Assembly: GCA_947446025.1 (NCBI GenBank)
Contig: CANFEY010000004.1
Location: 62,001 to 126,000, forward strand
Origin: Bryobacterales bacterium
GTDB taxonomy: Bacteria; Acidobacteriota; Terriglobia; Bryobacterales; Bryobacteraceae
Direction of reading: 5' to 3'
DNA length: 64,000 bases
The notes beneath the pieces are model-generated. The model was not told the origin of the DNA and did no database searches. It was given only the letters and a program-made list of their open reading frames with translations. The number at the start of each line of letters is the position of its first letter. Position 1 is the first letter of the stretch. A program made the position numbers and the translations under genes. Shown here piece by piece: positions 2,702 to 46,674 of this stretch.

Positions 2702-4008
2702 ATTTCGTCACCAAGAAATCTCTCTCCCGCCGCACCATGCTGCGCGGGATGATCTCTCTACCGTTGCTCGATGCCATGCTCCCCGCACTCAGCGCGCAGG
2801 CCGCTCCCACCATGCGCTTCGGCGCGGTGTACTTCCCCAACGGCGCAATCATGCAGCAGTTCACGCCGAAGACGTTCGGAGCGGACTTTGAATTCACGCC
2901 CATTCTCAAGCCCTTCGAGCCCTACAAGAACAACCTGGTCGTCGTCACCAATCTCACCCGCTCGCATCCAGGCAGCCAAGTGGGTGACCACGCCGTCAGC
3001 GCCGCCGGATTCCTCACCGGCGTGTGGCCCAAGCGCACCGAAGCCGAGGACGTTTACGCCAACACCACCATTGACCAGATCGTCGCCCAGCGCATCGGAC
3101 AACAAACGCCGTTGCCGTCACTCGAACTCGCCACCGAAGACTTCTCTGGCTACGTCGGCGGCTGCTCCCCCGGCTTCAGCTGCTCCTACATGAACACGAT
3201 CTCCTGGTCGTCGCCGAAAACGCCGCTGCCCATGGAGACGAATCCCCGCGCTGTCTTCGAGCGAATCTTTGGCGAACCCGGCACCTCCTCTGATCGCCGC
3301 GCGCGGCTCGCCAACCGCCGCAGCATTCTTGATTCCCTCGCCGAAGACGCCCGCGACATGGAGCGCCAGCTCGGCACCCGCGACCGCGCACGCCTGGGCG
3401 ACTACCTCGAAAACGCCCGCGAAATCGAACGCCGTATCCAACAAGCCGAGGCCCGACCAGTGAGCGAAACCGCCACACCCGAAGCCCCCCTCGGTACGCC
3501 CGAAAACTTCACTGACCATGTCGCCTTGATGTTCGACCTGGCCGCCGCCGCCTTTGAAGCCGACGCGACCCGCGTCTTCACCTTCATGATGTCGCGCGAG
3601 CTTAGCCAGCGCACCTACCCGCAAATCGGCGTGACCGAGCAGCACCATTCCGTTTCGCATCACTTGAACAACGCGCAGAAAATGGCGCAGATGGTCAAAG
3701 TCAACACGTACTACGCTGAGATGTACGCCCGCTTCCTGTCCAAGCTGCGCGCGACGCCCGACGGCGACGGGTCCCTGCTGGATCATTCGCTGCTCGCCTA
3801 CGGAGCTGGAATGTCGGATTCCAACGGCCACGTGTCAGACCCGTTGCCGATGGTCCTCACCGGCGGCGGCGTTGGCAAGGGGTCCCGCCACATGCAGGTG
3901 CCAGTGCGCACGCCCATCGGCAACCTGTGGCGCGACGTAGCGGAGCGCTTCGGCGCGAACGTGGAACAATTCGGAGACAGCACGGGGATCACCAATGTCT
4001 TTGCGTAG
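2698..4008 (+). CDS. DUF1552 domain protein with Tat-like signal (SRRTMLRG)
   Basis: ATGA overlap with the upstream gene; SRRTMLRGMISLPLLDAMLP...HHSVSHHLNNAQKMAQM...LLAYGAGMSDSNGH. Confidence 0.85.
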   Translation: MNFVTKKSLSRRTMLRGMISLPLLDAMLPALSAQAAPTMRFGAVYFPNGAIMQQFTPKTFGADFEFTPILKPFEPYKNNLVVVTNLTRSHPGSQVGDHAVSAAGFLTGVWPKRTEAEDVYANTTIDQIVAQRIGQQTPLPSLELATEDFSGYVGGCSPGFSCSYMNTISWSSPKTPLPMETNPRAVFERIFGEPGTSSDRRARLANRRSILDSLAEDARDMERQLGTRDRARLGDYLENAREIERRIQQAEARPVSETATPEAPLGTPENFTDHVALMFDLAAAAFEADATRVFTFMMSRELSQRTYPQIGVTEQHHSVSHHLNNAQKMAQMVKVNTYYAEMYARFLSKLRATPDGDGSLLDHSLLAYGAGMSDSNGHVSDPLPMVLTGGGVGKGSRHMQVPVRTPIGNLWRDVAERFGANVEQFGDSTGITNVFA

Positions 4009-5433: not shown

Positions 5434-6240
5434 CTAGCGCTTCTTCGTATCCGTCGCCGTCTTGATCGGCCGCGTCGTCGCGTCCGGCTTGGCGAAGCGC
5501 TTCTCATCAATCATCTGGTTGATGACCACGGAATCGGAAAACATCTCGTAGATCTTCTTCCCGTTGCGCTCCCGGTTGGTCTGGAACGGCCACTGGATGC
5601 CATCCACCGCGCGGTAGCGCGAATACCGCGTGACCTCTTCAAAACGCTCCCGCGTCTCATCGCGCCACTCCCACTTCTGCCGCAACGGAAGCTTTGTGGT
5701 CGGATGAAAGTACGCCGTCACCACCCGGTTCTTCGCGTCAATGATGTCCACGATGCTCATCGGCGTGTTTTCGATCACGTCGCTGCCCCGGTATTCGAAC
5801 ACCATACCCGGCTCCTTCAGCCGGTTGCGCAGGATGTAAAACAAGTTGTGCAGTGTCGAATCGTGGTACCGCGCCACCTGCTCTTTTTCGAGCTCCGTCG
5901 GGCCGCGATACGTCACTTCCCAGGCGCCCTCCTCGCGGAACACGCGGAAGAAGCCCTCATCCTTGCCCAACCCCTGGTGCTCCTGCTGGGCCAGTTCGAT
6001 CCCGCTCTTGGACGCATCAATCGGAACGTAGCGCGTGTAGAAACGCGCGATGGAAAGCCCGCTCAACTGGTCAAACGCGAACGAATAGGCCCGCCCCGTC
6101 TCAATGCGGTTCTGCACGGTGAGGAACTTCTCCCCGCCCAGCGCCTTCACGGCGTCGTCGACAATCTGCCGCCCTTTCAGCTGCGCGTCCTGCGCCGGTG
6201 CCGCAGCGGCAATCAAACAAAGTGCAAAGAATCGCTTCAT
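5434..6240 (-). CDS. Secreted protein, outer-membrane lipoprotein-sorting-like
   Basis: Signal peptide MKRFFALCLIAAAAPAQ, VKALGGEKFL..., YSRYRAVDGIQWPFQ. Confidence 0.6.
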   Translation of the reverse strand: MKRFFALCLIAAAAPAQDAQLKGRQIVDDAVKALGGEKFLTVQNRIETGRAYSFAFDQLSGLSIARFYTRYVPIDASKSGIELAQQEHQGLGKDEGFFRVFREEGAWEVTYRGPTELEKEQVARYHDSTLHNLFYILRNRLKEPGMVFEYRGSDVIENTPMSIVDIIDAKNRVVTAYFHPTTKLPLRQKWEWRDETRERFEEVTRYSRYRAVDGIQWPFQTNRERNGKKIYEMFSDSVVINQMIDEKRFAKPDATTRPIKTATDTKKR

Positions 6241-40221: not shown

Positions 40222-41420
40222 GCGAATTCACAGGTGAGCGCGTTATCCCGGGCCAAGTGGAAGACGACCTGTGGGCGGAGCATTTGGCCCGCTACGCATT
40301 CGCATCGCGACTGGCTGCCGGCAAGCGCGTGCTCGACCTGGGCTGCGGCACAGGCTACGGCACCGCTGAGCTGGCGAAGCATGCCACCGAGGCTGTCGGC
40401 GTGGACATTGCGGTGGAAGCGATCGATTACGCCACCGCGCACTACCCCGCCGCACGGTTCGTGACCGTACCGGCCACGGAGTTGCCCTTCGCGGAAGCTG
40501 CGTTCGATCTGGTGACCAGCTTTGAGCTGATTGAGCATCTCTCTGATTACCGCCCCTTGCTTGCGCAGGCCAAGCGAGTGCTGCATCCCGCGGGATTGTT
40601 TGTTGTCTCGACGCCCAACAAGCTTTACTACGCCGAGGCGCGTGGCGCGTCCGGGCCGAACCCTTTCCACGAGCACGAGTTTGAATACGCCGAGTTTGCC
40701 GCCGCTCTGCGCGCGTTTTTCCCGTACGTGAAACTCGTGTTGCAGGATCGCCTGGAAGCCTTCGCGTTCTACGACGCGAGCGCCGATGGCGAATGCCGCA
40801 TTGAACGCGTGTCCGGCGATCCCGCGGCCGCGAATTTCTTCGTTGCGATCTGCTCGCAGTATCCGTTGCCGGAGCTGCCACCGTTCGTCTACGTTCCCGC
40901 CGCAGCCAACTTGCTGCGGGAGCGGGAGACGCACATTCGCAAGCTGGAAGCCGAGTTGGGGAAGGTCCGGCGCTGGCTGGATGAAACGACTTTTTCTCGG
41001 GATGAACTGCTGGCGCGTCACATCGAACTCGAACGGCAGGCTGACGACAAAGCGCTGTGGGCGAAACAGCTGGAGGAGTTGTTGCACGCAGCACAGGCTC
41101 GCATCGTTGAGCTGCAGGATCAGAATGCGACGCAGCAGGCTGAAGCCACGGTGATCATCGAAGGGCTGCATGCGGAGAACCACAAGAATATTGAGTGGGC
41201 TCAGGAGACGGGGCGCAAGCTGGAGGCGAAGGCGAGGGAATTGGCGGCCACGGTGAAGCTGCTGGACCAAGCCGAGGCTACCGTGGTGGAACGCACCGAG
41301 TGGGCGCAGCGCCTGAACGCGGAGCTCTCAGCTGAGCGCGCGCGCATCGACGCTGTGCGGCAGTCGCGGTGGATGAAGCTGGGGAAAGCCGCCGGATTGG
41401 GGCCGAAGCTGGATTCATGA
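40218..41420 (+). CDS. Class I SAM-dependent methyltransferase with C-terminal coiled coil
   Basis: GKRVLDLGCGTGYGTAELA, LTSFELIEHL-like region, glutamine/glutamate-rich coiled coil. Confidence 0.85.
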   Translation: MSEFTGERVIPGQVEDDLWAEHLARYAFASRLAAGKRVLDLGCGTGYGTAELAKHATEAVGVDIAVEAIDYATAHYPAARFVTVPATELPFAEAAFDLVTSFELIEHLSDYRPLLAQAKRVLHPAGLFVVSTPNKLYYAEARGASGPNPFHEHEFEYAEFAAALRAFFPYVKLVLQDRLEAFAFYDASADGECRIERVSGDPAAANFFVAICSQYPLPELPPFVYVPAAANLLRERETHIRKLEAELGKVRRWLDETTFSRDELLARHIELERQADDKALWAKQLEELLHAAQARIVELQDQNATQQAEATVIIEGLHAENHKNIEWAQETGRKLEAKARELAATVKLLDQAEATVVERTEWAQRLNAELSAERARIDAVRQSRWMKLGKAAGLGPKLDS

Positions 41421-43774
41421 GGCGGCTTCTCTCCGAGGCGTGGCGGCTGGTGCGAGGCCTGCCACTGGTGGTGCTCGCGTTCGTGATGTTCGCAGGCTCG
41501 GCGCTGGTGTTGGCGGTGGCGGACCTGGTCCGCATGCTAGCCCAGGGCGCCTCAACACTGAACGGCGACCGTAAGGAAGCCGACAGACCGAACACAACGT
41601 CTGCGAGCGTCGTAATCCCCACCTGGAATGGCCGGGATCTGCTCGAGAAGTATTTGCCTTCCGTTGTCACCGCCATGTCCGGCAACCCCGACAACGAGAT
41701 CATCGTAGTAGACAACGGATCCGAGGACGGCAGCGCGGCTTTTCTGCGCGAGCATTTCCCGCAAGTCCGCCTGCTAGCGCTCGACCAAAACCTGGGTTTC
41801 GGCGCCGGCTCCAACGCGGGCTTCCGCGCCGCCAAAAACGACATCGTCGTGCTGCTGAACAGCGACATGCGCGTCGAGCCGGACTTCCTCCAACCGTTGC
41901 TCGACGGTTTTCAAGACGCCGACACCTTCGCCGTCTCCTGCCAAATCTTCCTCTCCGACCCGGCCAAGAAGCGCGAGGAGACCGGCCTCACCGAAGGTTG
42001 GTGGCAACAAGGCAGCCTGCGCGTCGGCCATCGAATCGAGCCTGAGATCAGTGACCTCTTCCCCTGCTTCTACCCCGGCGGCGGCTCCAGCGCCTACGAC
42101 CGACGCAAATTCCTCGAACTCGGCGGCTTCGACCCGCTCTACCATCCGTTCTACCTGGAAGACGGCGACCTCGGGTATATGGCGTGGAAGCGCGGCTGGA
42201 AGACGTTCTATCAGCCGGCGAGCGTGGTGTACCACGAACATCGCGGGACCATCGGGAAGAAGTTCTCGCGTGAGTACATCGACGCGGCGTTGCGCAAGAA
42301 CTTTGTGTTGTTCGCGTGGAAGAACATTCATAGCTGGCGGATGTTGGGTGAGCATTTCTTCTTCACCTGGGCTGGCGCGAAGATTTACTGGCTAGCGGGC
42401 GGGGGGAACATCGACCGTCCGAATTTCGCGGGCATCGTGCGCGCGGCACGACAATTGCCGCAAGCGCTGGCAGCCCGGAGGCGCGCGCAGTCGCTCGCTG
42501 CGATTCCCGACCGCGAGGCGTTCCGGCGGCCGCTGGGCGGGCACTTCCGCGACACATTTGAAAAACTTCCTGCTCGGCCGGAGAAGCTGAGCGTGCTGTT
42601 CGTATCGCCCTATCCGATCTGCCCGCCCATCCACGGGGGCGGTGTGTTCATGTATCAGACGGTGCGTGAGCTGGCGAAGTTGGTGGATCTGCACTTGATC
42701 GTGCTGCTGGATCATGAGCGGGAGCGCGCGCCGCATGCCGAGCTGGACCCGATTTGCGCGTCAACGAACTACATCGCGCGCTTGGTGGGGCGGCAGAAAG
42801 CGTTGGGGTCGACCGAGCCGCACGCGCCGCGCGAGTTCCGCAATCGCGACTTGGCGTGGCTGATTCATCGGACCATCTATACGAAGAAGGTGGACGTGCT
42901 GCAGTTGGAGTACACGGTGTTGGGTCAGTACGCGGGTGAATTCCGCCGCAGTCCGAGCATGCTGTTTGAGCACGACGTGTACTTCCAGTCCATCGCGCGG
43001 CGGCTGCCTTACATGAACGGACTGGTGGAACGCGTGGAGGCCCGGTGGGAATATCTGCGGGCGCTGCGGTATGAGTTGAAGTTGCTGCCGCGCATGGATC
43101 GGGTGCAAGTCTGCACGCGGGATAACGCGGAGTATCTGGAATCCTTTCTGCCGGGGCTGAAGGGCAAGATTGATGACGGGTTCCGCGCGGGGATTGATAC
43201 GGCTCAGTATGCGTTCAAACCGGCGGGGCGTGAGCCGTTTACGCTGTTGTTCCTGGGCAGCTTTCGGCACTTGCCGAACGTGGAAGCGTTGCAGTGGTTT
43301 CTGAAGTACGTGTTTCCGAAGATCCGGGCCGCGGAGCCGCGCGCGAAGTTGGTGATTGTGGGGTCCGATCCGCCGCCGCGGCATTCGTTGCTGGATGCGG
43401 AGGCGATTGAGATGATCGGCTTCGTGGAGGATGTGCGGGAGCCGCTGGCGCGGTATGCGGTGTTCGTATGCCCGATTTTAGCGGGGTCGGGAATCCGGGT
43501 GAAGTTGCTGGAGGCGTTCGCCGCGGGGATTCCGGTGGTGTCTACTCGGGTGGGGGCCGAGGGATTGACGGACAAGGATGGCGCGGTGTGCGCGTTGGCG
43601 GATGATGCCACGGGTTTTGCGGCGCATGCGGTGCGGTTGTTGCAAGACTCGGCTGAAGCGGAGGCGTTAGCGCGTCGCGCTCGGGCAGATGTGATGGCGA
43701 AGCGCGACATGCGCGTCATCACCGGGAAGTTGGCTGAGTGCTATCGGGTCGAGGTAGCGCGCATGCGGGGTTAG
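41417..43774 (+). CDS. Two-domain glycosyltransferase (GT2 then GT4)
   Basis: SVVIPTWNGRDLLEKYLPSV...NSDMRVEPDFL; later KLSVLFVSPYPICPPIHGGGVFMYQ...GSGIRVKLLEAFAAGIPVVSTRVGAEGL. Confidence 0.88.
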   Translation: MRRLLSEAWRLVRGLPLVVLAFVMFAGSALVLAVADLVRMLAQGASTLNGDRKEADRPNTTSASVVIPTWNGRDLLEKYLPSVVTAMSGNPDNEIIVVDNGSEDGSAAFLREHFPQVRLLALDQNLGFGAGSNAGFRAAKNDIVVLLNSDMRVEPDFLQPLLDGFQDADTFAVSCQIFLSDPAKKREETGLTEGWWQQGSLRVGHRIEPEISDLFPCFYPGGGSSAYDRRKFLELGGFDPLYHPFYLEDGDLGYMAWKRGWKTFYQPASVVYHEHRGTIGKKFSREYIDAALRKNFVLFAWKNIHSWRMLGEHFFFTWAGAKIYWLAGGGNIDRPNFAGIVRAARQLPQALAARRRAQSLAAIPDREAFRRPLGGHFRDTFEKLPARPEKLSVLFVSPYPICPPIHGGGVFMYQTVRELAKLVDLHLIVLLDHERERAPHAELDPICASTNYIARLVGRQKALGSTEPHAPREFRNRDLAWLIHRTIYTKKVDVLQLEYTVLGQYAGEFRRSPSMLFEHDVYFQSIARRLPYMNGLVERVEARWEYLRALRYELKLLPRMDRVQVCTRDNAEYLESFLPGLKGKIDDGFRAGIDTAQYAFKPAGREPFTLLFLGSFRHLPNVEALQWFLKYVFPKIRAAEPRAKLVIVGSDPPPRHSLLDAEAIEMIGFVEDVREPLARYAVFVCPILAGSGIRVKLLEAFAAGIPVVSTRVGAEGLTDKDGAVCALADDATGFAAHAVRLLQDSAEAEALARRARADVMAKRDMRVITGKLAECYRVEVARMRG
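41553..41588. repeat. Palindrome family 1, single arm inside a CDS (copy C)
   Basis: caacactgaacggcgaccgtaaggaagccgacagac, translated STLNGDRKEADR in the 41417..43774 gene. Confidence 0.8.
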
Positions 43775-44260: not shown

Positions 44261-44926
44261 ATGTATAAGAGCCAGAAAATTACTGTGATCATCCCGTGCT
44301 TGAATGAGGAGCAGGGCATTGAACGCGTGCTGAATCGCATGCCTGATTTCGTTGATGAAACGATTGTTGTGGACAATGGGTCCACGGATCGGACGTCGGA
44401 TGTTGCGAAGAGTTTGGGCGCGAAAGTGGTGCGGGAGGATGTGCGCGGGTACGGGCGTGCGTACAAGACAGGCTTCGCGCAGGCGACGGGGGACGTGATC
44501 ATCACGCTGGATGGGGACCACAGTTATCCGCCGGATGCAATCTCCTATCTGCTGGAGGCGTTTCTGCATTTGGAGGTGGATTTCCTGAACACGTCGCGCT
44601 TTCCGGTGCGGGAGCGGGCGGCGATGAGTTTGAAGCACAAGTTCGGGAACCTGATCTTGTCGGTCGCGATGTCGGTGTTGTTTTTGCGGTGGGTGCGGGA
44701 TTCGCAATCTGGGATGTGGGTGTTCAAGCGGTCGATCTTGAAGGACATGAAGCTGGTGTCGGACGGCATGGCTTTTTCGGAAGAAATCAAGATTGAGGCG
44801 TTGAAGCGGGTGCGGTTTGAGGAGATTTCGATTCAGTACAGTTCGCGGCTAGGGGAGATCAAGTTGAATCCGTGGCGGGACGGGTTCGCGAATTTGTGGT
44901 TTCTGGTGACGAAGCGCTTCTCATGA
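44261..44926 (+). CDS. GT2 glycosyltransferase (DPM1-like)
   Basis: MYKSQKITVIIPCLNEEQGIERVLNRMPDFVDETIVVDNGSTDRT...GDVIITLDGDHSYPPD. Confidence 0.88.
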   Translation: MYKSQKITVIIPCLNEEQGIERVLNRMPDFVDETIVVDNGSTDRTSDVAKSLGAKVVREDVRGYGRAYKTGFAQATGDVIITLDGDHSYPPDAISYLLEAFLHLEVDFLNTSRFPVRERAAMSLKHKFGNLILSVAMSVLFLRWVRDSQSGMWVFKRSILKDMKLVSDGMAFSEEIKIEALKRVRFEEISIQYSSRLGEIKLNPWRDGFANLWFLVTKRFS

Positions 44927-46674
44927 AAGTGGCCGCTGTCATTCCGCACTGGAATCGCGCGGCGTTGCTAGCGGCGCTGCTTAATAATCTGCGGTTGCAG
45001 ACGCGGCTGTTTGACGAAGTGATCGTGGTGGACAACGGGTCGGCGGACGGGTCGGCGGATTTGGCGGAGCGGGCTGGGGCGCGGGTAATCCGGTTGGACC
45101 GGAATTTTGGGTTCGCGGTGGCGGTGAACCGGGGTGTGGCGGCGACGGATGCGGATTGGGTGGCGATTCTCAACAATGATGTGACGCTGGATGCGGGGTG
45201 GCTGGAGCGGCTGCTGGCGGCGGGGACGAATGCCGCGGATGTGCGGGCGGCGGCGTTGGGGGCTCTTGAGCAGAGGCGCGAGGAATTCCTGGGGGAGTAT
45301 ACGCGGCGGTTCGGGAACGTGCTTAATGCCGACTGCGCGGCGGAATTGTTTCCGGAGTACGCGACATCGCTGGAAAGCCGCGCTCGATTCCGGGTTGCGG
45401 TACACCCGGCGGCGCAGTGGATTCGGGATGAGTTGTTTGATGGAGCGTTGGCGGATTCGAAGATTGGTGAGGTTATCTTCACCGCTGGCGGCAACGGGGC
45501 CGGAAAGACCAGTGGCGCTCCCCAAGGTGACGTTATCTACGACAGTACTCTGAATAACGCCGAGCACGCGGAGCGATGCATTCAACGGTGCCTGTTGGCG
45601 GGCAAGAGCATCGTCGTGGCCTACACGTACCGTCCGATCCGAGAAGCATTTCTAGGAGTCTTGCGGCGTGCCGTTTCCGAGGGGCGGACGGTTGCGATCG
45701 ACACCGTCATCAAGACCCACACGGAGTCGGCGAAGACAAGCGCGGTGTTGTCCGAGCGCTTTCGTGATGAACCAAGGGTTTCGTTTCGCTTTCTGGACAA
45801 CAGTGCCGGGAGGCCGCGTCTGGGCGATGTTGCGCTGACGGCCAAAGAGAATTACGCTAGTAGTCGAGATGACCTTTACGGTATCCTCGAATCCGAGCGC
45901 CACAGAATCCCTGGGCATATCTACGGTGCCAGCTCGGGATCCAAAGCTCGAAGCGCGAGCGGACGATATCGCGCAGCAGATTCTGGACAATCTCACCAAG
46001 CTGGCGCAGGCCAAGCGCGATCAGGCCGGTCAGAAGTAGTTTCCTTCGCTACGGGCAAGATACTCTCCGCCCGCGATGCCTCCCTTCTTGATGGTGCCTG
46101 GGATGCGATATCCCGGGGGGCGTGCGCGCTGCGCATTGGCCAGGGTGCGCCGGACGGGCCCGAATGGAATGAACTCCGCACGATCCGCATGGCGTCACTG
46201 ACGGCTTGCCTGGTGCGCCGGTCGGCGTGGATGCCGCTGGATGAGCGGTTTGGATCCTACCTGGAAGATGTGGATCTTTGTCTGCGGTTCGCGAAGGTTG
46301 GCCTGGAAGGCGTCTACGAACCCACTGCCGTTGCCTACCACCAGGGAAGTTCGACATGGGGGCGGTGGAATCCTGACACAGTGCTGTTACTTTCGCGTAA
46401 CCAGGTTTTGGTGGCAGCGAAACACTTCCGGGGCCAGCCGAGGTGGCCCATCCTGGCCGGACAATTGCTTTGGGGGTTAGTGGCCCTGCGTCACGGCGGG
46501 GGCTGGGCTTGGCTGAAGGGCAAGCTCGCCGGGCTGCGGCTGGCCGGAACCATTGAAAATGACACTCACGACGCGCAGGGCTTCGCCACTTTTCTCCGGC
46601 AGAGCGAAGGCGAAATCGCAGAACGGCAGCGCGGACTCTATTGGAGGCTCTACTTTTGGCTGGCCTCGCGATAG
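44923..46674 (+). CDS. GT2 glycosyltransferase ORF interrupted in frame by a zeta-toxin-like kinase segment (~45243-46040)
   Basis: GT2 N-part MKVAAVIPHWNRAALLAALL...WVAILNNDVTLDAGWLERLLAAGTNAADV; insert LEQRREEFLGEYTRRFGNVLNADCAAELFPEYA...IFTAGGNGAGKTS; GT2 C-part SFATGKILSARDASLLDGAWD...FGSYLEDVDLCLRF. Confidence 0.85.
   Translation: MKVAAVIPHWNRAALLAALLNNLRLQTRLFDEVIVVDNGSADGSADLAERAGARVIRLDRNFGFAVAVNRGVAATDADWVAILNNDVTLDAGWLERLLAAGTNAADVRAAALGALEQRREEFLGEYTRRFGNVLNADCAAELFPEYATSLESRARFRVAVHPAAQWIRDELFDGALADSKIGEVIFTAGGNGAGKTSGAPQGDVIYDSTLNNAEHAERCIQRCLLAGKSIVVAYTYRPIREAFLGVLRRAVSEGRTVAIDTVIKTHTESAKTSAVLSERFRDEPRVSFRFLDNSAGRPRLGDVALTAKENYASSRDDLYGILESERHRIPGHIYGASSGSKARSASGRYRAADSGQSHQAGAGQARSGRSEVVSFATGKILSARDASLLDGAWDAISRGACALRIGQGAPDGPEWNELRTIRMASLTACLVRRSAWMPLDERFGSYLEDVDLCLRFAKVGLEGVYEPTAVAYHQGSSTWGRWNPDTVLLLSRNQVLVAAKHFRGQPRWPILAGQLLWGLVALRHGGGWAWLKGKLAGLRLAGTIENDTHDAQGFATFLRQSEGEIAERQRGLYWRLYFWLASR
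45869..46039 (+). CDS. 56-aa ORF overlapping the end of the zeta-like segment in another frame (possible antitoxin)
   Basis: MTFTVSSNPSATESLGISTVPARDPKLEARADDIAQQILDNLTKLAQAKRDQAGQK*; shorter than the supplied ORF cutoff. Confidence 0.5.
   Translation: MTFTVSSNPSATESLGISTVPARDPKLEARADDIAQQILDNLTKLAQAKRDQAGQK

What the first reader, a model, noticed from the sequence alone, without database searches (positions are those of the whole stretch)
45228..46045. Zeta-toxin-like kinase nested in frame inside a GT2 glycosyltransferase
The 44923..46674 ORF starts and ends as one GT2 enzyme (NNDVTLDAGWLERLLAAG ... SFATGKILSARD ... GSYLEDVDLCLRF). It is interrupted by ~266 codons that read as a zeta-type P-loop kinase (VIFTAGGNGAGKTS; KSIVVAYTYRPIREAFLGVLRRAV). 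Removing about 45243-46040 gives ...TNAADV|SFATGKIL..., a normal GT2 continuation. The frame stays open through both junctions, so the result is either a real inserted-domain fusion or a recent insertion of a compact toxin cassette. I saw no obvious terminal inverted repeats or transposase. A kinase of the UDP-GlcNAc-phosphorylating zeta class inside a sugar-nucleotide-using enzyme would be new to my knowledge.
Basis: partly seen in the sequence, partly recalled or inferred. Interest (0 to 1): 0.75.

Follow-up and report, generated by a model that had tools for sequence, protein, structure and literature searches.

The report
Zeta-kinase inserted inside a glycosyltransferase
In two related bacteria (Bryobacteraceae) a sugar-transfer enzyme carries, spliced into its middle without breaking the reading frame, a whole zeta-toxin-like kinase of the kind that phosphorylates sugar-nucleotides, and the same DNA stretch hides a second conserved small gene in another frame that is a good candidate for the kinase's antidote.

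Summary
ORF 44923-46674 (583 aa) is a GT2 glycosyltransferase with a zeta-like kinase inside it. A second species of the genus has the same fusion (69% identity in the kinase), while the other orthologs aligned are uninterrupted at that site. It is therefore neither an assembly chimera nor a recent insertion. GT and kinase are under strong purifying selection (dN/dS about 0.1).

Two corrections. First, the kinase is not a classical zeta toxin. By sequence, block order and predicted fold it is of the block-swapped ng_zeta1 type, whose gonococcal prototype phosphorylates UDP-sugars at C4'. P-loop Lys, catalytic Asp and both active-site Arg are kept; two UDP-MurNAc contacts are not.

Second, the last ~35 codons of the insert are not kinase. 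They evolve in the +1 frame, as a 56-aa ORF (45869-46039) that starts inside the kinase and ends at a conserved TAG at the insert's edge. Comparable +1 ORFs, with an ATG at the same place, follow 17 of 19 relatives examined (Bryobacteraceae, proteobacterial plasmids, a phage polyvalent gene).

Best reading: a toxin-antitoxin-like overlapping pair that inserted cleanly in frame and was kept. Antitoxin function and UDP-sugar substrate are inferred.

The parts
44923..45234 (+). N-terminal half of the GT2 glycosyltransferase (nucleotide-sugar-binding half of the GT-A fold, with DNGS and NND motifs)
   Evidence: PF00535 2.9e-24; aligned to 8 uninterrupted orthologs; AF2 pLDDT 85-96 for residues 1-100, Foldseek hits TarP, GalNAc-T2, heparosan synthase; dN 0.14 with synonymous sites saturated
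45235..46041 (+). In-frame insert of 269 codons, absent from the 8 genus orthologs aligned across the site, present in one sister species
45241..45930 (+). ng_zeta1-type (block-swapped) zeta-like kinase domain: Asp 45331-45333, P-loop GGNGAGKT 45487-45510 with Lys 45505-45507, Arg 45667-45669 and 45685-45687
   Evidence: PDB sequence profile hit 6EPG/6EPH/6EPI E 1.4e-14; AF2 pLDDT 79, Foldseek best hit 6EPI TM 0.79 against about 0.5 for canonical zeta; dN/dS 0.11; residue mapping from the alignment with PMC5923241
45869..46039 (+). Overlapping +1-frame ORF of 56 aa (MTFTVSSNPSATESLGISTVPARDPKLEARADDIAQQILDNLTKLAQAKRDQAGQK), candidate antitoxin; stop TAG 46037-46039
   Evidence: Substitutions in 45937-46039 fall on the +1 third position (15 of 28); +1 dN/dS 0.25 in its last 35 codons against frame-0 dN/dS 2.1 in the tail; comparable +1 ORF in 17 of 19 kinase relatives with an ATG at the same structural site
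45853..45872 (+). 20 nt identical between the two species, including third positions, spanning the ATG of the +1 ORF (TACGCTAGTAGTCGAGATGA)
45931..46041 (+). Frame-0 linker (Ser/Gly/Gln/Arg-rich) between kinase and GT C-half, dual-coded with the +1 ORF; open in both species but unconstrained in frame 0
46042..46674 (+). C-terminal half of the GT2 glycosyltransferase (SFATGK, LEDVD catalytic region) and stop
   Evidence: alignment to orthologs with LEDVD residues kept; dN/dS 0.12

Best explanation
An ng_zeta1-type toxin-antitoxin-like pair (kinase gene plus a small gene overlapping its 3' end in the +1 frame) entered a GT2 gene cleanly and in frame before two Bryobacteraceae species diverged, and both reading frames have been kept since. 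One transcript makes (i) a GT2 with the kinase as an inserted domain in the loop after the NND helix, and (ii) from an internal ATG, a 56-aa helical protein. Most likely the small protein binds the kinase and holds it inactive. If it runs short, the kinase phosphorylates UDP-sugars and drains the nucleotide-sugar pool that this and neighbouring glycosyltransferases use. The pair would be locked in because frame-shifting loss breaks the GT, and loss of the small ORF alone frees the kinase. Shown: fusion, its age, purifying selection on GT halves, kinase and the 3' part of the +1 ORF, kinase subclass, intact catalytic residues. Inferred: translation of the small ORF, antitoxin role, substrate, addiction.
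For: Fusion in two species, uninterrupted orthologs elsewhere in the genus, clean junctions. dN/dS: kinase 0.11, GT-C 0.12, GT-N dN 0.14 with dS saturated, +1 ORF C-part 0.25, frame-0 tail 2.1. In G014 the codon at the kinase start is GTT, not a start codon, and no upstream untranslated region came with the insert, so the kinase can hardly be made except as a fusion. Kinase matches ng_zeta1 by profile (1.4e-14) and fold (TM 0.79). ng_zeta1 phosphorylates UDP-GlcNAc, UDP-Glc and UDP-MurNAc at C4' and is a TA toxin (PMC5923241). Catalytic Asp, P-loop Lys and both Arg kept. Small ORF: +1 in 11 of 11 cassettes measured; ATG at the same site in 17 of 19 relatives, and the Tyr there is TAT in all 11 cases where it supplies the ATG against 46% background; substitution phase supports +1 coding in independent pairs where frame 0 is already closed by stops (L076/L077 7,3,20; L080/L035 8,10,20).
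Against: The small ORF has no detectable relative in NCBIfam, PHROGs, PADLOC or the PDB, nor its C-part in Pfam, and is not ng_eps1, which lies upstream of ng_zeta1 (primer design in PMC11964940). No clear Shine-Dalgarno stands before its ATG. Its first 21 residues show no constraint in +1. Two ng_zeta1 contacts to the UDP-MurNAc lactyl group (Asn75, Lys59) are not kept, so the substrate may differ. Relatives compared are not phylogenetically independent. The full-length AF2 model is poor (pLDDT 58.5), so the relative placement of kinase and GT is not modelled.
Confidence: 0.5

Rival explanations
1. Domesticated bifunctional enzyme: the kinase domain has become a regulatory or catalytic part of the GT (for example modifying the donor sugar-nucleotide or the product) and is no longer a toxin; the small +1 protein is its regulatory subunit.
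For: Both enzymes act on sugar-nucleotides (by family); GT-C and kinase evolve under similar constraint (dN/dS about 0.1); the fused gene is the only ortholog of this GT found in either genome; it lies in an O-antigen-type cluster with a Wzt-type ABC transporter and several GTs.
Against: The small +1 ORF is shared with free-standing and phage copies, so it is not a feature acquired for the GT. No evidence of a product or partner.
Confidence: 0.25
2. Neutral passenger: the pair landed in a permissive loop, the GT still folds, and selection keeps the small ORF only because the kinase would otherwise be harmful (pure addiction, no benefit).
For: Clean loop insertion, unconstrained frame-0 linker; cassettes elsewhere sit directly behind or at the end of host genes, in two cases flanked by long direct repeats.
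Against: Kinase constraint (0.11) is as strong as that of the GT over a deep split; inactivating changes of the P-loop have not occurred in either species.
Confidence: 0.15
3. The +1 tail is not a separate gene but the kinase's own C-terminus, reached by programmed +1 frameshifting; unshifted ribosomes make the GT-kinase-GT fusion and shifted ones make a truncated GT-N-kinase.
For: Invariant +1 relation in all cassettes; in the window pair the constraint is seen only downstream of about 45930.
Against: An ATG in the +1 frame at one structural site in 17 of 19 relatives, biased TAT codons supplying it, and a fully conserved 20-nt stretch around it; no recognisable slippery site (by eye).
Confidence: 0.09
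4. Assembly chimera or pseudogene.
For: None found.
Against: Same structure on a separate contig of another species; dN/dS about 0.1; insert far from contig ends (107 kb into a 144-kb contig).
Confidence: 0.01

Closest known systems
ng_zeta1/ng_eps1 toxin-antitoxin pair of Neisseria gonorrhoeae (PDB 6EPG, 6EPH, 6EPI; PMC5923241)
   Same: Sequence profile match over the whole kinase (1.4e-14), same swapped order of blocks (Asp block before the P-loop), fold TM 0.79, same Lys, Asp and two Arg
   Different: No OB-fold domain; Asn75 and Lys59 not kept; no ng_eps1 relative; candidate antitoxin overlaps the toxin 3' end in +1 instead of preceding it; here fused inside a GT2
Classical zeta/PezT UDP-GlcNAc 3'-kinases with epsilon (PDB 1GVN, 2P5T, 3Q8X)
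   Same: Same kinase superfamily; Pfam Zeta_toxin hit over the P-loop-distal half
   Different: Block order differs, fold match much weaker (TM about 0.5, rmsd about 10), no epsilon three-helix antitoxin
AvrRxo1-ORF1/ORF2 of Xanthomonas (PDB 4Z8Q-4Z8V)
   Same: Zeta-like kinase with a small partner gene
   Different: Weak sequence (E 0.36) and fold match; NAD kinase according to the literature; not fused
Zeta-toxin-like kinase domains of polyvalent proteins (PMC5512222)
   Same: Such kinases embedded in long multidomain proteins of phages and conjugative elements; relative L065 lies in a 1,876-aa phage ORF
   Different: Here the host is a chromosomal GT2; passages read in that paper do not mention a nested +1 ORF
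Uninterrupted GT2 orthologs of the same genus
   Same: Orthologous flanks, catalytic motifs kept
   Different: No insert, about 322-331 aa

Membership tests
ng_zeta1-type zeta kinases | Overall sequence similarity to ng_zeta1 kinase domain | tested here: met
   Profile A1 hits 6EPG/6EPH at 1.8e-13 to 1.4e-14 over positions 2-186
ng_zeta1-type zeta kinases | Swapped block order, P-loop nearer the C-terminus, catalytic Asp block first | tested here: met
   NAD (Asp) at 45331 precedes P-loop at 45487; best fold match 6EPI TM 0.79 against about 0.5 for canonical zeta
ng_zeta1-type zeta kinases | Catalytic Asp56, P-loop Lys115, Arg175, Arg181 | tested here: met
   All four align to invariant residues of the family
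ng_zeta1-type zeta kinases | UDP-MurNAc contacts Asn75 and Lys59 | tested here: not met
   Aligned residues are Arg and Ala; a substrate difference is likely, so UDP-MurNAc preference is not claimed
ng_zeta1-type zeta kinases | C-terminal OB-fold domain (not general in the subclass) | tested here: not met
   Kinase core is followed by a linker and the GT C-half; the paper finds the OB domain only in gonococcal and one Eikenella homolog
ng_zeta1-type zeta kinases | Phosphorylates UDP-sugars at C4' | not testable with these tools
   Needs enzymology
Type II toxin-antitoxin module | Small protein gene linked to the toxin gene and co-conserved with it | tested here: met
   +1 ORF in 17 of 19 relatives, under +1 constraint; translation itself not shown
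Type II toxin-antitoxin module | Antitoxin homologous to a known antitoxin | tested here: not met
   No match in PHROGs, NCBIfam, PADLOC or PDB; C-part no match in Pfam
Type II toxin-antitoxin module | Toxicity and its neutralisation by complex formation | not testable with these tools
   Needs expression in a laboratory strain
GT2 (GT-A) glycosyltransferase | GT-A nucleotide-binding half with acidic motif; ED catalytic motif in the second half | tested here: met
   PF00535 2.9e-24; NND and E-D-x-D columns invariant in 10 sequences including both fused ones; Foldseek GT-A hits
Mobile genetic element or cassette | Terminal repeats, target duplication or recombinase at the copy | tested here: not met
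   No repeats at the GT2 copy; flanking direct repeats only at two relatives, L072 161 bp and L076 85 bp

The most novel reading that the evidence does not exclude
ng_zeta1-type kinases as a class carry a previously unannotated antitoxin gene overlapping the toxin's 3' part in the +1 frame, and here such a pair has become part of a glycosyltransferase, giving an enzyme with a built-in, antidote-gated switch on its own nucleotide-sugar supply.
Probability: 0.3. Interest if true: 0.85.

Novelty: new variant of a known kind. Interest (0 to 1): 0.66.

Why it matters
If right, it is a toxin-antitoxin pair that lives inside a metabolic enzyme and shares its frame, which bears on how selfish modules become fixed in genomes and on regulation of surface-glycan synthesis. 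The conserved +1 ORF also gives a directly testable partner for 'orphan' zeta-like kinases on plasmids, phages and chromosomes. No report of either was found in the open-access papers searched; subscription papers could not be searched.

Tried and rejected
Assembly chimera (rejected by the second species). Recent insertion (rejected by divergence). Insert as one continuous kinase (rejected by substitution phase). Conserved minus-strand ORF as the cause of the tail's phase pattern: no minus frame is as conserved as +1 in the window pair (best 0.50 against 0.56, with stops); in the L076/L077 pair one minus frame ties (0.82) but has stops, so it is unlikely though not excluded by this test alone. 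The small ORF as ng_eps1: no match and other position. Terminal repeats or promoter at the GT2 copy: none. Ungapped comparison of the L074/L075 tails was misaligned and not used; the gapped one is. In the L071/L072/L065 comparisons both frames are about equally conserved, so those pairs do not discriminate. A full-length AF2 model was obtained, but only the GT N-half is reliable. PHROGs and PADLOC gave no usable hit.

Full report
Observation. ORF 44923-46674 codes for 583 aa without a stop. Pfam finds GT2 at its N-terminus and Zeta_toxin in its middle. Eight uninterrupted orthologs of about 322-331 aa from the same genus align on both sides of a clean gap, 'NA|[ADV...EVV]|SFATGK', so the insert is 45235-46041 and no host residue is clearly missing. 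The catalytic columns of the GT are kept in the fused copies.

Not an artefact, not recent. A second species (G014, whose contig was also found as CALQCC020000004.1) has the same fusion in an open frame of 604-609 codons, 69% identical in the kinase. Of 23 genus genomes only these two have the kinase; other family genomes that have a related kinase have it elsewhere in the loci read. Between the two, synonymous sites are near or at saturation while dN/dS is 0.11 for the kinase and 0.12 for the GT C-half; GT-N has dN 0.14 with dS not computable. In both genomes this is the only ortholog of the GT found at E 1e-20.

What the kinase is. A six-sequence profile finds the gonococcal ng_zeta1 toxin in the PDB at 1.4e-14 and no classical zeta. 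A model of the domain (pLDDT 79) matches ng_zeta1 best, TM 0.79, with classical zeta toxins at 0.4-0.5. In ng_zeta1 two sequence blocks are swapped relative to classical zeta, the enzyme phosphorylates several UDP-sugars at C4', and it is neutralised by an extended helical antitoxin (PMC5923241). The window kinase has the same block order and the same Asp, Lys and two Arg, but not the two residues that contact the lactyl group of UDP-MurNAc, nor an OB domain. I therefore call it ng_zeta1-type and leave the exact substrate open.

A second frame. From 45937 to 46039 substitutions between the two species fall on the +1 third position (15, 7, 6 by frame-0 phase), unlike everywhere else in the gene. 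The frame-0 tail has dN/dS 2.1, the last 35 codons of the +1 ORF 0.25. The +1 ORF starts at ATG 45869, within 20 nt that are identical in both species including third positions, and ends at TAG 46037-46039, two bases before the first host codon. Because only 28 substitutions are involved the single-pair test is modest (P 0.02 for the excess at the +1 third position, P 1e-4 for the deficit at the frame-0 third position against the body's pattern).

The same arrangement elsewhere. In 11 of 11 kinase cassettes measured the 3' ORF is in +1. In 17 of 19 relatives, including Burkholderia, Methylomonas and Novosphingobium plasmids and a phage polyvalent gene, a +1 ATG lies at the last kinase helix and opens 53-99 codons. 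Where a Tyr codon supplies the ATG it is TAT in 11 of 11 against 47 of 102 in the bodies. Pairs in which frame 0 has already stopped still show +1 constraint: L076/L077 (7, 3, 20) and L080/L035 (8, 10, 20). The small proteins are alike within clades but diverge strongly between clades, and they match no library used. The plasmid gene tables read do not list them, though those tables are incomplete.

How it probably works. The kinase start carries GTG in one species and GTT in the other and no upstream untranslated region came with the insert, so the kinase is most likely made as part of the GT. The small ORF most likely is a translated, separate protein. By analogy with ng_eps1 and other small partners of zeta kinases, binding and inhibition of the kinase is the simplest role; this is inference. 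A kinase acting on UDP-sugars inside a GT, in a cluster of GTs with a Wzt-type exporter, could either be an addiction module held in place by the GT or a regulator of the GT's donor pool. The data do not decide between the two.

Origin. Relatives sit in a polyvalent-type phage protein (L065, 1,876-aa ORF), as free genes directly behind host genes (L071, L073), and in two cases between long direct repeats (L072, 161 bp of the lactate-permease-like gene's 3' end at 92.5%; L076, 85 bp at 88%). No terminal repeat was seen at the GT2 copy, so the route of insertion is unknown.

Limits. Relatives are phylogenetically related, so counts over them are not independent. The conservation test cannot by itself exclude programmed frameshifting or, for single pairs, a minus-strand signal. 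No expression data were available. The literature search covered open-access full texts only.

Noticed in passing
L072:4806-6048 (G212): A relative of the kinase cassette lies at the 3' end of a lactate-permease-like gene between 161-bp direct repeats (92.5% identical) of that gene's end, as if insertion duplicated the target.
   Followed up: partly
L076:4855-4939 and 6016-6100 (G081): Another cassette is flanked by an 85-bp direct repeat (88%).
   Followed up: no
L075:4967-7333 (G245): The kinase frame runs without a stop into a histidine-kinase-like sensor ORF (788 aa), a possible second in-frame fusion or a chance read-through.
   Followed up: no
L065:715-6345, +1 ORF about 3653-3847: In a viral contig the kinase is one domain of a 1,876-aa polyvalent-type protein and the +1 small ORF is nested inside that gene.
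   Followed up: partly
L163:1863-3095 (Burkholderia multivorans plasmid NZ_CP090691.1): An annotated zeta toxin family gene has a +1 ORF of 66 codons after the kinase core that is not in the gene table; a similar one is in Methylomonas plasmid CP157007.1.
   Followed up: partly
L021 (CALQCC020000004.1): This MAG is titled Bordetella parapertussis but is grouped with the window's genus (Bryobacteraceae-like relatives); the title looks like a mislabel.
   Followed up: no
window 41369-43774: 801-aa ORF joins a GT2 and a group-1 glycosyltransferase in one protein.
   Followed up: no
L080 and L035, +1 ORFs: In this kinase clade the +1 small protein ends in a different conserved motif (SIELFIK.AIARF.D.TTPFP.VW), so the small partners differ between clades.
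   Followed up: partly
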